From the NCBI GenBank assembly GCA_030019445.1, contig JASEEU010000002.1, positions 248,995-312,994 on the forward strand: 64,000 nucleotides of DNA, read 5' to 3'. The translations under genes were made by a program, and so were the position numbers. This DNA comes from Anaerosomatales bacterium. GTDB taxonomy: Bacteria > Actinomycetota > Coriobacteriia > Anaerosomatales > Anaerosomataceae. Within the stretch, counting starts at the first letter, position 1; every line of letters begins with the position of its first letter. The notes under the pieces were generated by a model, which worked only from the letters and a program-made list of their open reading frames with translations, searched no databases and was not told where the DNA came from. Positions 44,927-64,000 of the stretch are shown here, one piece after another.

Positions 44927-45023
44927 GGAGGCGGATGGGGCCTGGTGGCTCCCGCGGTCTTCAAAACCGTAGTGGGGCGTGAAGAGCGTCCCGGGTGTGT
45001 TCGATTCGCACGCGCCTCCGCCA
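44927..45023 (+). tRNA. selC: tRNA-Sec (anticodon TCA)
   Basis: 97-nt selenocysteine tRNA with encoded CCA. The acceptor GGAGGCG pairs with CGCCTCC; the eighth pair typical of bacterial tRNA-Sec would be G-G. The extended 6-bp D stem GGGGCC/GGCTCC closes a 4-nt TGGT loop, the anticodon loop is CTTCAAA, there is a long variable arm, and the T arm is GTGTG TTCGATT CGCAC. These features distinguish tRNA-Sec from tRNA-Ser. Confidence 0.95.
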
Positions 45024-60002: not shown

Positions 60003-60896
60003 GTGAACATCGCCCAGCTGCGGACGTTCGTCGCCGTCGTCGAGCACCGTTCGTTCTCCGGCGCAGCCCGGGCGCTCGGCATCTCGCAGCCGGCCGTCAC
60101 CATGCAGGTGCAGGCGCTCGAGGCCGATCTTGGCGTGACGCTGCTCGACCGCGCGTACCGCTCCGTGGATCTTACGGAGGCCGGGCGGGCGCTGCTTCCG
60201 TACGCGCGCAAGGTGCTCGCCGAGCTCGACGACGCCCGTGACGCCATAGCGGAGCTCTCCACGACCGTGGGCGGCCATCTGGAGGTCGCCGCCTCCACCA
60301 CGCCCGGCCAGTACGTCCTTCCCCGCCTGCTCGGCGGCTTCCTGCGCGAATTCCCCGACGTGAGCGTCGCCCTGCGCGTGCTCGACACGGCAGCGGTCGT
60401 GGAGCACGTGGAGTCCGGGGACGCGCACATCGGCATGGTCGGAGCTGAGGTGCACGGCGCGCGCGTCCACTACGAGCGCCTCGGCAGCGACGACCTTGTG
60501 ATGGTCTGCCCGCCCGACCACCCCGTGCTCGCCCGGGAGAGCGTGCTGCTCTCCGAACTCGTGGAGGAGTCGTTCATCGTGCGCGAGCCCGGGTCGGGCA
60601 CGCGCATGGTCGTCGAGGAGGCGATGCAGCGCTCCGGCATCGACCCCTCCGAGCTGCACGTTGTGATGGAGCTCGGCACCAACGAGGCGGTCCTCTCGGC
60701 GGTCGAAGGCGGCATGGGCATCGGCGTGGTGAGCATGTGGGTGGCCGAGAAGGCCCTCGAGCTCGGCACCGTCGGACGCGTGCCGGAGCACGGCTTCCCG
60801 CTCGCTCGGCCCCTCTTCCTCGTCGAGCCTCGCGGCACGATGACGCGGGCCGCCGACGCGCTCGCCGACCACCTCTCGGGGATCCTCGGCTCCTGA
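60003..60896 (+). CDS. LysR-family transcriptional regulator
   Basis: A 297-residue LysR regulator with an N-terminal HTH (about 1-60, NIAQLRTFVAVVEHRSFSG) and a periplasmic-binding-like effector domain (about 88-297). GTG 60003 is preferred because GGGAGG stands upstream. TAGCAT at 59966-59971 is a possible -10. It is divergent from the Fur-family gene and lies upstream of tupA on the same strand, so regulation of tungstate uptake is a natural guess. The effector is unknown. Confidence 0.9.
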   Translation: MNIAQLRTFVAVVEHRSFSGAARALGISQPAVTMQVQALEADLGVTLLDRAYRSVDLTEAGRALLPYARKVLAELDDARDAIAELSTTVGGHLEVAASTTPGQYVLPRLLGGFLREFPDVSVALRVLDTAAVVEHVESGDAHIGMVGAEVHGARVHYERLGSDDLVMVCPPDHPVLARESVLLSELVEESFIVREPGSGTRMVVEEAMQRSGIDPSELHVVMELGTNEAVLSAVEGGMGIGVVSMWVAEKALELGTVGRVPEHGFPLARPLFLVEPRGTMTRAADALADHLSGILGS

Positions 60897-60898
60897 GT

Positions 60899-60927
60899 TT
60901 GTCTGCACGGGAAGACTGCGCTACCCT
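60899..60927 (+). promoter_or_regulatory. Promoter for tupA
   Basis: TTGTCT (60899-60904) and TACCCT (60922-60927) are 17 nt apart, immediately after the lysR stop. Predicted transcription starts near 60934, before the structured leader. Confidence 0.55.
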
Positions 60928-60951
60928 CGTTCCCATACCCGCGCGCCCCTG

Positions 60952-61053
60952 ACGCGGGCCATAACCTCCGAAGTCTCGCGGACCTACAGCGCTTCGACAC
61001 GCCATGGACGCGAGACCGACAGGGTGAGACCGGGAAACCGCCTCATCTCCCGT
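60952..61053 (+). ncRNA. Moco/Tuco RNA-like riboswitch in the tupA leader
   Basis: Structured 5' leader. The visible helices are: P1, GCGGG (60954-60958) with CCCGT (61049-61053); a perfect 8-bp helix GTCTCGCG (60973-60980) with CGCGAGAC (61009-61016); and a GNRA hairpin CGG-GAAA-CCG (61031-61040). The conserved-looking ACCTCCGAAG and CGACAGGGTGAGAC flank them. The layout recalls the molybdenum/tungsten cofactor motif as I remember it. P1 closes a few bases before AAAGGAG, so it could hide or release the ribosome site. The tungstate gene downstream fits a tungsten-cofactor sensor. The family assignment needs a covariance-model search. Confidence 0.6.
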
Positions 61054-61072
61054 ACTTGGAAAGGAGCGTTCT

Positions 61073-61948
61073 ATGTCGAACCGTAAGAGGAGGTCCGCCT
61101 TGTGGCGGATCCTCGCCGTAGCCCTCTCGATGTCGCTGGTGTTCTCGCTGGCGGCGTGCACGTCCGAGGATACGGCGGAGGAACCCGGGGGTCAGGCACA
61201 AGAGCCTGTCGAGCCGACACGGCTCGTCCTCGCGTCGACCACGTCCACACAAGACTCAGGGTTGTTCGACGTGCTGATCCCCGCCTTCGAAGAGGCCTAC
61301 CCGGAGTACTCGGTCGAGGTCGTGGCCGTCGGCACCGGTGAGGCTCTCGAGCTCGGCCGCAACAAGGACGCCGACGTCCTGCTCGTCCACGCCAAGGCAT
61401 CCGAGGAGGAGATGGTCGCCGAGGGGTACGCGACGGAGCGTCGTGACGTGATGTACAACGACTTCATCATCGTCGGGCCTGCCGCGGACCCCGCGGGTGT
61501 CGGCGGCACCTCCGATGCGGCTGCTGCGCTGACCGCGATCTCCGGGTCGGGCGCCGAGTTCGCATCGCGCGGTGATGACTCGGGCACCCACAAGAAGGAG
61601 CTCCAGCTCTGGGAGGCGGCCGGCATCGAGCCGTCCGGCGACTGGTACCTCTCGGTCGGCCAGGGCATGGGCGACACGCTCAAGCTCGCCTCCGAGAAGG
61701 GCGCCTACACGCTCACGGACCGCGCGACCTATCTCAACCTGCGTGACACGCTGCAGCTGGAGATCCTGGTGGAGGGCGATAGCGCGCTGTTCAACCAGTA
61801 CGGCGTCCTGCCCGTCACCGATGCCACCAACAGTGACGGCGCCGAGGCGTTCACCGACTGGGTCACCAGCGCGGACGCGCAGGCGATCATCGAGGAGTAC
61901 GGGATCGACACGTTCGGCCAGCCGCTGTTCGTGCCGAACGCACAGTAG
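61073..61948 (+). CDS. tupA: Tungstate-binding lipoprotein TupA
   Basis: Extracytoplasmic binding protein of the tungstate ABC transporter. The 291-residue lipoprotein has a lipobox (SLAAC, Cys about 29), an acidic linker, and a type II periplasmic-binding fold. TupA hallmarks are TTSTQDSG near residue 57, NKDADVLLVHAKASEE, MYNDFIIVGP and the oxyanion loop ASRGDDSGTHKKE. GGAAAGGAG precedes ATG 61073. tupB and tupC follow on the same strand. Confidence 0.95.
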   Translation: MSNRKRRSALWRILAVALSMSLVFSLAACTSEDTAEEPGGQAQEPVEPTRLVLASTTSTQDSGLFDVLIPAFEEAYPEYSVEVVAVGTGEALELGRNKDADVLLVHAKASEEEMVAEGYATERRDVMYNDFIIVGPAADPAGVGGTSDAAAALTAISGSGAEFASRGDDSGTHKKELQLWEAAGIEPSGDWYLSVGQGMGDTLKLASEKGAYTLTDRATYLNLRDTLQLEILVEGDSALFNQYGVLPVTDATNSDGAEAFTDWVTSADAQAIIEEYGIDTFGQPLFVPNAQ

Positions 61949-62035: not shown

Positions 62036-62740
62036 ATGGAACCCATCGTAGAGGGATTCGTAGAAGCCGGCAGGCTGCTCGCGAGCGGCGCGTCCGCCGT
62101 CTACGAGATCATCTTCCTCTCGCTGCGCGTCTCGGCGCTCGCTGTGGCGATCGCGATGCTCGTCGGCATCCCGCTCGGCTACGTGCTCGGCGTCGGTAGG
62201 TTCAAGGGCCGACGCGTCGCGCTGATCCTCGTGAACACCGGCATGGGCCTCCCGCCGGTGGTGGCCGGCCTGCTCGTCTACATGTTCCTGTCGCGCAGCG
62301 GCCCGCTCGGCGACCTGCGCCTGCTCTTCACCGTGCCTGCGATGATCATCGCGCAGGTGCTCATCGCGACACCGCTCGTGACCGGCGTGACCGCTGCCGC
62401 CATCGGTTCGGTCCCGCTCGAGCTGCGTCTGCAGGCCCGCTCGCTCGGTGCATCGTGGCTCCAGGAGTCGTGGCTGACCGTCAAGGAGGCGCGACGGGGC
62501 GTCATGGCCGCAGTCGTTGCGGGATTCGGCGGCATCATCTCCGAGGTGGGCGCCGTCATGATCGTCGGCGGCAACATCGAGCACTCGACCCGCGTGATGA
62601 CGACCGCGATCGTGCTCGAGGCGCGCAAGGGCAACTTCGGCACCGCGCTCGCCCTCGGCCTCATCCTCATCGGCATCGCGTTCGCCATCAACGGCATGCT
62701 GACCGGACTGCAGCAGTCAGGAGCGCGCTATGAGCGATAG
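62036..62740 (+). CDS. tupB: Tungstate ABC transporter permease TupB
   Basis: Membrane subunit of the tungstate importer. The 234-residue protein has about five or six membrane helices and the EAA-type coupling loop (LQARSLGASWLQESWLTVK). Family-like segments are LVNTGMGLPPVVAGLLVYMFL and GGIISEVGAVMIVGGNI. AGGGG lies upstream of ATG 62036. tupC starts 11 nt before its stop. Confidence 0.93.
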   Translation: MEPIVEGFVEAGRLLASGASAVYEIIFLSLRVSALAVAIAMLVGIPLGYVLGVGRFKGRRVALILVNTGMGLPPVVAGLLVYMFLSRSGPLGDLRLLFTVPAMIIAQVLIATPLVTGVTAAAIGSVPLELRLQARSLGASWLQESWLTVKEARRGVMAAVVAGFGGIISEVGAVMIVGGNIEHSTRVMTTAIVLEARKGNFGTALALGLILIGIAFAINGMLTGLQQSGARYER

Positions 62741-63827
62741 CCGACATCCGCTCATCGAGGCGAGCGGCATCCGCCAGGCCTACCGGCGTCGCACCGTCCT
62801 CGATGTCGAGCGTTTCGGGGTGGCCGCCGGTGAGACGCACGCGCTGCTCGGGCCGTCGGGAGCGGGCAAGTCGACGCTGCTCCGGATCGTCGGCCTGCTC
62901 GAGCGACCGCGCGAGGGGTCCATCCGGATCGACGGCACGCCCGTCACGCACCGCGATCGCGCCGCCCGTCTCCAGATGGCCGCTGTGTTCCAGAAGCCGT
63001 ACCTGTTCGCGGGAACGGTGGCCGAGAACGTCGCGTACGGCCTGCGCCTCCGTCGTGTGCCCCAGGGCGAGCGCGCGAGCCGTGTGGCGTCGGCGCTCGG
63101 AGACGTCGGCCTGTCTGAGTTCGCGAGCGCGTCCGCCCTCACGCTCTCGGGCGGCGAGGCGCAGCGCGTGGCGCTCGCCCGCGCGCTCGTGCTCCGCCCC
63201 CGGATCCTCCTGCTCGATGAGCCGCTGAGCTACCTCGACCCCCTCATCAAGCGCCGGTTGGTCGGGGACTTCCGACGCATCCTGGCCGAGACGGACGTCA
63301 CGACGCTCTACGTCACGCACGACCAGGACGAGGCGATGGTCGTCGCCGATCGGGTGAGCATCATGCACGAGGGGCGCATCGTGCGGACGGGCGACACGGA
63401 CGAGGTCATGAGCCTTCCGACGACCGACTGGGTGGCGGACTTCGTCGGGATGGAGTCCCCGCTTCGTGGCCGCGTCGTCGCGTGCCACGACGACCTCGCC
63501 GAGGTCGATTGCGGGGGCGTGTCGGTCTTCGGGCTGACGCCGCTTGCGATCGGAGCCGACGTGCTCGTCGGTGTGCGACCCGAGGATGTGACGCTCTTCG
63601 CCGGCGATGGGCTGCCGCCCAGCTCGGCGCGGAACGCCCTGCGATGCGTGGTGGACGGCATCGAGCCACGGGGCGCCACGGCCCGCGTGAGGGTGGCGGC
63701 TGACGGTCTCAAGCTCGCGTCGCTCGTCTCGCTCGCCGCGCTCACGGAGCTCGGGCTTGCTCCTGGCATGCCGGTTGTTGCCATGTTCAAGGCGACGGCC
63801 GTGCGCATCGGCCCGGCGCCCGAATGA
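62730..63827 (+). CDS. tupC: Tungstate ABC transporter ATP-binding protein TupC
   Basis: ATPase of the tungstate importer. The 365-residue protein has Walker A GPSGAGKSTLLRIVG (about 45), Q-loop AVFQKPYLF, signature LSGGEAQRVALARALV, Walker B ILLLDEPLSYLD and H-loop VTHDQDE. The C-terminal 120 residues (about 240-365) form a TOBE/molbindin-like domain that may sense oxyanion and regulate transport. ATG 62730 overlaps tupB by 11 nt. Confidence 0.93.
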   Translation: MSDSRHPLIEASGIRQAYRRRTVLDVERFGVAAGETHALLGPSGAGKSTLLRIVGLLERPREGSIRIDGTPVTHRDRAARLQMAAVFQKPYLFAGTVAENVAYGLRLRRVPQGERASRVASALGDVGLSEFASASALTLSGGEAQRVALARALVLRPRILLLDEPLSYLDPLIKRRLVGDFRRILAETDVTTLYVTHDQDEAMVVADRVSIMHEGRIVRTGDTDEVMSLPTTDWVADFVGMESPLRGRVVACHDDLAEVDCGGVSVFGLTPLAIGADVLVGVRPEDVTLFAGDGLPPSSARNALRCVVDGIEPRGATARVRVAADGLKLASLVSLAALTELGLAPGMPVVAMFKATAVRIGPAPE

Positions 63828-63862: not shown

Positions 63863-63907
63863 GGGTGACGCGTCCGGCGACGCGGAAGCGTGCAGGTGGA
63901 GGTTCGT

Positions 63908-64000
63908 GTGGGTAAGGGAACGGATCGCATACCGGTGACCGGAACGGTGCTCGCGGGCGGCCGATCGCTGCGCATGGGCATCGACAAGACGCTGCTCCCC
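63908..64000 (+). CDS. mobA: Molybdenum cofactor guanylyltransferase MobA, 3' end beyond the window
   Basis: Adds GMP to molybdopterin to make the guanine dinucleotide cofactor. Only the first 31 codons are present. They include TVLAGGRSLRMGIDKTLLP, the nucleotide-binding GGRSxRMGxDK signature of MobA. GTG 63908 follows GGAGG. Its position after tupABC fits a molybdenum/tungsten cofactor locus. Confidence 0.88.
   Translation, partial: MGKGTDRIPVTGTVLAGGRSLRMGIDKTLLP

What the first reader, a model, noticed from the sequence alone, without database searches (positions are those of the whole stretch)
60897..61072. Moco/Tuco-type riboswitch candidate controlling tungstate uptake
The 5' leader of tupA forms a closing P1, a perfect 8-bp helix, a GAAA tetraloop hairpin and conserved-looking single strands. 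P1 ends next to the ribosome site. A cofactor sensor controlling tungstate import, with mobA downstream, would be a neat feedback loop. A tungsten-cofactor-responsive member would be of special interest.
Basis: partly seen in the sequence, partly recalled or inferred. Interest (0 to 1): 0.75.

Follow-up and report, generated by a model that had tools for sequence, protein, structure and literature searches.

The report
Tungsten-type Moco riboswitch before tupA
The RNA leader of a bacterial tungstate-import operon is a bona fide member of the known molybdenum/tungsten-cofactor riboswitch family, of the subtype long suspected (but never proven) to sense the tungsten cofactor, and it most likely shuts off translation of the importer when enough cofactor has been made.

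Summary
Confirmed. Window 60954-61084 matches Rfam RF01055 (Moco RNA motif) over the full model: 55.8 bits, cut-off 36, E 1.8e-12; it is the only such RNA in its genome. It lacks stem P3, the variant Regulski et al. 2008 proposed to sense tungsten cofactor (Tuco). The 3' strand of P1 is the Shine-Dalgarno of tupA, 6 nt before its ATG: a translational OFF-switch layout. Leaders of 43 relatives keep the fold (96.4% of cells paired, 17 of 28 pairs with two-sided changes). All 49 tup leaders found in relatives are P3-less with the same SD-in-P1 layout. Of 109 such RNAs in the order 105 lack P3; the four with P3 all lie in one genome, which has ModA but no TupA or AOR. The window's genome has TupA and five AORs but no ModA. 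Exceptions exist: a P3-less RNA before modA (G005) and P3-bearing RNAs before tupA-like genes in two Bacillota MAGs. Family membership is settled; W-over-Mo selectivity and direct ligand binding are not. New member of a known kind.

The parts
60003..60896 (+). LysR-type regulator gene, upstream neighbour (possibly co-transcribed; not needed for the RNA)
   Evidence: NCBIfam NF040786 'selenium metabolism-associated LysR', 260.5 bits, above its cut-off of 250; a LysR gene of the same cluster precedes the RNA at about 25 hits in the order
60954..61084 (+). P3-less Moco/Tuco riboswitch aptamer with built-in expression platform
   Evidence: RF01055, 55.8 bits, full-length model 1-135, E 1.8e-12
60964..60969 (+). 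P1 5' strand (ACCUCC; CUCC is the anti-SD part)
   Evidence: P1 covaries in tup leaders from other phyla: C-G to U-A in 8 and 3 sequences at two of its pairs
60973..60980 (+). P2 5' strand, perfect 8-bp helix
   Evidence: all six P2 pairs scored have two-sided changes in 43 relatives
60982..61008 (+). distal P2 with the GNRA-receptor-like internal loop (CCUAC...CAUGG) and the P2b hairpin
61009..61016 (+). P2 3' strand
61017..61021 (+). P2-P4 junction (CGACA); stem P3 is absent here
   Evidence: the cmscan alignment has a gap at the whole P3; the junction is 5-7 nt in the P3-less relatives
61022..61048 (+). P4 hairpin with GAAA tetraloop (61034-61037)
   Evidence: P4 covaries
61049..61059 (+). 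P5 short hairpin
61063..61066 (+). P1 3' strand = Shine-Dalgarno GGAG of tupA
   Evidence: the same arrangement in 49 of 49 tup leaders of the order
61073..61948 (+). tupA-like tungstate-binding lipoprotein gene
   Evidence: NF041772 TupA, 190.5 bits, E 3.6e-56, but below the strict equivalog cut-off of 400
62036..62740 (+). tupB-like permease gene
   Evidence: NF038017 above cut-off; NF041773 TupB 180.6 bits, below its cut-off of 320
62730..63827 (+). ABC ATPase with TOBE domain (tupC/wtpC/modC-like)
   Evidence: NF040840 WtpC is the best NCBIfam model, 255.5 bits, below its cut-off; TOBE
63890..64000 (+). start of the mobA::fdhD fusion gene (474 aa; runs off the window), followed in the contig by moeA and, further on, moaA
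   Evidence: FdhD and MobA models on one protein

Best explanation
The tupA leader is a cis-acting riboswitch of the Moco RNA family (RF01055), P3-lacking (proposed Tuco) subtype. SHOWN: its fold and family; the fusion of its P1 3' strand with the tupA Shine-Dalgarno; its order-wide conservation in front of tupABC-mobA::fdhD-moeA. INFERRED: when the finished pterin cofactor carrying tungsten (Tuco) is plentiful it binds the P2/P4/junction core, stabilises P1 and buries GGAG (perhaps also the AUG), so TupA and the rest of the operon are translated less. When cofactor is short, P1 opens and tungstate import and cofactor assembly rise. Most likely ligand: the tungsten cofactor (about 0.65), otherwise Moco or either one. 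The confidence below covers the whole statement; membership in RF01055 alone would be about 0.99 and OFF-type translational control about 0.85.
For: RF01055 full-length hit, sole hit in the genome. P3 absent. 43 homologous tup leaders: 96.4% of cells paired vs 83.2% shuffled and 33-53% for slid structures, 17 pairs with two-sided changes; 104 RNAs of the order: 20 of 28 pairs; 39 matches at tup loci of other phyla: 21 of 28 pairs, including two P1 pairs. SD within P1 and a start codon 3-8 nt on in 49 of 49 tup leaders. Tungsten physiology: five AOR genes, TupA-like SBP, no ModA in the own genome. P3 segregation: 105 P3-less RNAs stand before tupA (49), FDH (38), AOR (5) and others; the four P3 RNAs are all in G040, which has ModA, no TupA, no AOR and is 99% complete. 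Other phyla: P3-less RNAs precede AOR or FDH, P3 RNAs precede moa/moe/modA and FmdE-like genes. Literature: PMC2408646 proposes P3-less = Tuco, 17 of 19 organisms.
Against: Exceptions to P3 = Mo: a P3-less RNA before a modA gene in G005 and P3-bearing RNAs before tupA-like genes in two Bacillota MAGs, L187 and L188. The in-order P3 contrast rests on one genome, i.e. perhaps one evolutionary event. TupA/B/C score below the strict NCBIfam cut-offs, so substrate specificity is not certain. Within the order's tup leaders P1 is almost invariant, as any SD would be. Regulski et al. could not show direct binding and did not exclude a protein factor; deleting P3 from the E. coli RNA abolished regulation rather than switching it.
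Confidence: 0.72

Rival explanations
1. Same riboswitch, but the ligand is Moco or any metal-loaded (or metal-free) pterin; the P3-less form does not discriminate W from Mo. Tungstate import is controlled because this organism happens to use W.
For: Exceptions to the P3 rule in both directions (P3-less before modA in L114; P3 before tupA-like genes in L187 and L188). P3 absence is shared by nearly the whole order, so it may be inherited rather than selected for W. FDH, the second main target, can use either metal (general knowledge).
Against: P3 state tracks ModA/TupA/AOR content in the order and gene type in other phyla; the 2008 survey found the same.
Confidence: 0.25
2. The fold is a binding site for a protein (a CsrA-like or cofactor-sensing protein, or one tied to the adjacent LysR gene) rather than a direct metabolite sensor.
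For: Direct binding has not been demonstrated for the Moco RNA; a LysR gene sits just upstream.
Against: Size, multi-stem core and conserved unpaired core typical of aptamers; the RNA also occurs without the LysR gene, before fdh and AOR genes, and in other phyla.
Confidence: 0.06
3. Moco-family RNA that acts as an ON switch, or by transcription termination, at this locus.
For: fdh leaders of the same order have terminator-like hairpins after the aptamer, so the family uses more than one platform.
Against: Here the SD is itself P1 and no terminator follows; 49 of 49 tup leaders share this layout. E. coli moaA has the SD in P1 too and Moco represses it.
Confidence: 0.05

Closest known systems
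Moco RNA motif / Moco riboswitch (Rfam RF01055), E. coli moaA leader
   Same: P1, P2 with GNRA-receptor region, P4 with GAAA loop, P5, TTGGAAAGGAG 3' end; SD inside P1; translational control
   Different: Stem P3 is missing here; the controlled gene is a tungstate importer instead of moaABCDE
P3-lacking Moco RNAs (proposed Tuco riboswitches), Regulski et al. 2008 (PMC2408646)
   Same: No P3; associated with tungsten-use genes; tupA/tupB homologues were their marker for W users
   Different: New lineage; a tup leader in an order where the arrangement is nearly universal and the same SD-in-P1 platform recurs in 49 leaders
tupABC tungstate ABC importer (Eubacterium acidaminophilum type)
   Same: TupA-like and TupB-like proteins with an ABC ATPase in one operon
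   Different: Scores below strict equivalog cut-offs; ATPase is WtpC/ModC-like with a TOBE domain; operon extended by mobA::fdhD and moeA

Membership tests
Moco RNA motif (RF01055) | Covariance-model score at or above the gathering cut-off (36 bits) | tested here: met
   55.8 bits, model 1-135 of 135
Moco RNA motif (RF01055) | P1, P2, P4, P5 formed and supported by covariation in homologues | tested here: met
   P2, P4, P5 in the order; P1 too across phyla
Moco RNA motif (RF01055) | GNRA (GAAA) tetraloop on P4 with a receptor in P2 | tested here: inconclusive
   GAAA at 61034-61037 is present; the receptor region is CCUAC...CAUGG here, against canonical CCUAAG...UAUGG; tertiary contact not testable
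Moco RNA motif (RF01055) | Located before Mo/W cofactor, transport or enzyme genes | tested here: met
   tupABC-mobA::fdhD-moeA
Proposed Tuco subtype | No P3 stem | tested here: met
   gap at P3
Proposed Tuco subtype | Host carries tungsten-use genes | tested here: met
   TupA-like present, five AOR, no ModA
Proposed Tuco subtype | Binds or responds to tungsten cofactor and not Moco | not testable with these tools
   needs reporter assays and probing
Riboswitch (general) | Direct binding of ligand by RNA without protein | not testable with these tools
   not shown for the E. coli moaA RNA either (PMC2408646)
TupA tungstate-binding protein (NF041772 equivalog) | Score at or above 400 bits | tested here: not met
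   190.5 bits, only NCBIfam match; no TupA in the 61 genomes passes it, so called TupA-like

The most novel reading that the evidence does not exclude
The P3-less leader is a genuinely tungsten-selective cofactor sensor, i.e. an RNA that tells a W-pterin from a Mo-pterin, and this whole order has built control of its tungstate uptake, formate dehydrogenase and some AORs on it, with a P3-bearing Mo version present only in a lineage without tungsten genes.
Probability: 0.5. Interest if true: 0.65.

Novelty: new member of a known kind. Interest (0 to 1): 0.4.

Why it matters
Whether a tungsten-specific riboswitch exists has been open since 2008, because the cofactor is too unstable for ordinary binding assays. 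This leader offers a clean test: the SD is in P1, the start codon follows 6 nt later, the controlled gene is the metal's own importer, and a P3-bearing counterpart exists in a related Mo-using genome. Comparing the two leaders in one reporter host would ask directly whether P3 state goes with W or Mo response.

Tried and rejected
Folding energy as evidence: z -0.87, uninformative. Sigma-70 promoter between the LysR gene and the RNA: none found. Terminator at the locus: only a weak hairpin at the end of the LysR gene, so a transcriptional platform was rejected here. A class-wide comparison gave little: outside the order only 4 genomes of the class have the RNA. A WtpA check failed because the accession I tried is not in the library; one search was over the handle limit and was split. 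P1 5' extension pairing with the AUG: the MFE pairs CAUA 60960-60963 with UAUG 61072-61075 and CAT is commoner there in tup leaders (23 of 45) than in fdh leaders (5 of 31), but relatedness is not controlled, so it is only a hint. In silico P1 probability without ligand varies among leaders (0.83 here, mean 0.28) and says nothing firm about the free state.

Full report
OBSERVATION. It is one of only three Rfam matches in the whole window and the only RF01055 match in the 2.09-Mb genome. Mapped onto the sequence: P1 CUCC 60966-60969 with GGAG 61063-61066; P2 GTCTCGCG/CGCGAGAC (the 'perfect 8-bp helix'); a distal P2 with the receptor-like internal loop; P4 with GAAA 61034-61037; and a short P5. 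The unconstrained MFE fold gives the same P1, P2 and P4, with a hairpin at P5 shifted by about a base. The energy itself is ordinary for the composition (z -0.87).

COVARIATION. 43 leaders of related genomes were aligned by sequence only (MAFFT). RNAalifold gives the same architecture, with 17 of 28 pairs changed on both sides in at least one sequence. Counting on that structure, 96.4% of cells pair against 83.2% in shuffles and 33-53% in slid controls. P1 hardly varies within the order, as expected for a Shine-Dalgarno. In tup loci from other phyla P1 does covary (C-G to U-A in 8 and 3 sequences at two of its pairs; that alignment was fitted to the model, so it leans towards the structure).

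ANATOMY OF THE SWITCH. GGAG, the 3' strand of P1, is the Shine-Dalgarno of tupA; ATG follows after 6 nt. In the order, all 49 tup leaders have the same layout, spacing 3-8 nt. By contrast, most of the 38 formate-dehydrogenase leaders have the aptamer far from the gene and a GC-rich hairpin with a T-rich tail after it, which looks like a transcription-termination platform. So the tup leader is, by its layout, a translational switch in which P1 formation hides the SD. E. coli moaA has the same layout and its translation is repressed by Moco (PMC2408646).

GENES. Upstream: a LysR-type regulator of the 'selenium metabolism-associated' family. Downstream: TupA-like (only NCBIfam match TupA, but 190.5 bits against a strict cut-off of 400), TupB-like, an ABC ATPase with TOBE domain, then, past the window end, a mobA::fdhD fusion, moeA and further on moaA (moaA recognised by eye). 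The own genome has five AOR genes, one molybdopterin-family oxidoreductase and no ModA. A feedback loop from cofactor to tungstate import is therefore the natural reading.

W OR MO? Regulski et al. 2008 noted that Moco RNAs without P3 go with tungsten users (17 of 19 organisms) and proposed that they sense Tuco, without demonstrating binding. The window RNA has no P3. I tested the idea on 109 RNAs from 56 of 61 related genomes. 105 lack P3 and stand before tupA 49, FDH 38, AOR 5, a diheme/ornithine-racemase group 5, modA 1, other or unresolved 7. Four have P3, all in G040. G040 is 99% complete and has ModA, no TupA at E 1e-20 and no AOR; one of its P3 RNAs precedes modA, others FmdE/DUF364/FecCD-type genes and genes of unknown function. 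In other phyla, reading the RNA sequences and the ORFs after them, P3-less RNAs precede AOR (four) and FDH (one), with two more before genes of unclear link; P3 RNAs precede moa/moe, FmdE-like, modA and a molybdopterin-enzyme gene. This supports the proposal, with limits: the in-order contrast is one genome; a P3-less RNA precedes modA in G005 (L114); and two Bacillota MAGs (L187, L188) have P3 RNAs before tupA-like genes.

BREADTH. Searching tupA relatives in named genomes gave 80 loci; a model built from the order's tup leaders finds Moco RNAs in 31 of them, mostly shortly upstream of tupA, chiefly in Bacillota and actinobacterial relatives. So 'Moco RNA before tupA' is a general arrangement, and this window is one member of it.

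VERDICT. Family membership and the tungstate-uptake context are settled; OFF-type translational control is very likely; tungsten selectivity is likely but unproven. It is ordinary as a discovery (a new member of a known class) and useful as a test case for a question open since 2008; the interest score reflects that.

Noticed in passing
G040 (L064, L097, L103): The only genome in the order whose Moco RNAs carry stem P3 (four RNAs); it has ModA but neither TupA nor AOR. A natural Mo-side control for the P3 hypothesis.
   Followed up: yes
fdh leaders, e.g. L106, L112, L033, L124: Moco RNAs before formate-dehydrogenase genes (alpha subunit apparently split at an in-frame stop, as for selenocysteine) are mostly followed by GC-rich hairpins with T-rich tails: a terminator-like platform, unlike the tup leaders.
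   Followed up: partly
L199 6368-6475(+) and 3581-3470(-); L192 6349-6459; L166 6375-6488: Divergent Moco-like RNAs with a shortened P2, apparently no canonical receptor and no GAAA loop on P4, next to tup loci; in L199 they precede a xanthine-dehydrogenase-like gene and a ferredoxin/AOR-like operon (read by eye). Two score 37.2 and 29.9 bits with RF01055 (cut-off 36), the L199 pair did not reach E 0.1; possibly a distinct subtype.
   Followed up: partly
L187 3493-3625, L188 3770-3919: P3-bearing Moco RNAs upstream of tupA-like genes followed by two moeA-like genes (Bacillota MAGs): exceptions to the P3 = Mo rule, or tup-like importers that carry molybdate.
   Followed up: partly
L114 (G005): P3-less Moco RNA before a modA gene, the opposite exception.
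   Followed up: no
L042 1001-1123 and 1387-1507; L063; L066: Two Moco RNAs within about 0.4-0.9 kb of each other, the second before a diheme GEGP-type cytochrome gene (L042) or a tupA-like gene (L063, L066); in L063 and L066 an unknown gene (cluster c13, about 210-250 aa) lies between them.
   Followed up: no
window 63890 to contig C16 314308 (L032 8885-10309): MobA and FdhD fused in one 474-aa protein in the tup operon, recurrent in the order: guanylyltransferase and formate-dehydrogenase sulfurtransferase coupled to tungstate import.
   Followed up: partly
window 44927-45019 and 60003-60896: Selenocysteine tRNA gene and a 'selenium metabolism-associated' LysR gene in the same window: selenium and tungsten functions lie close together.
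   Followed up: no
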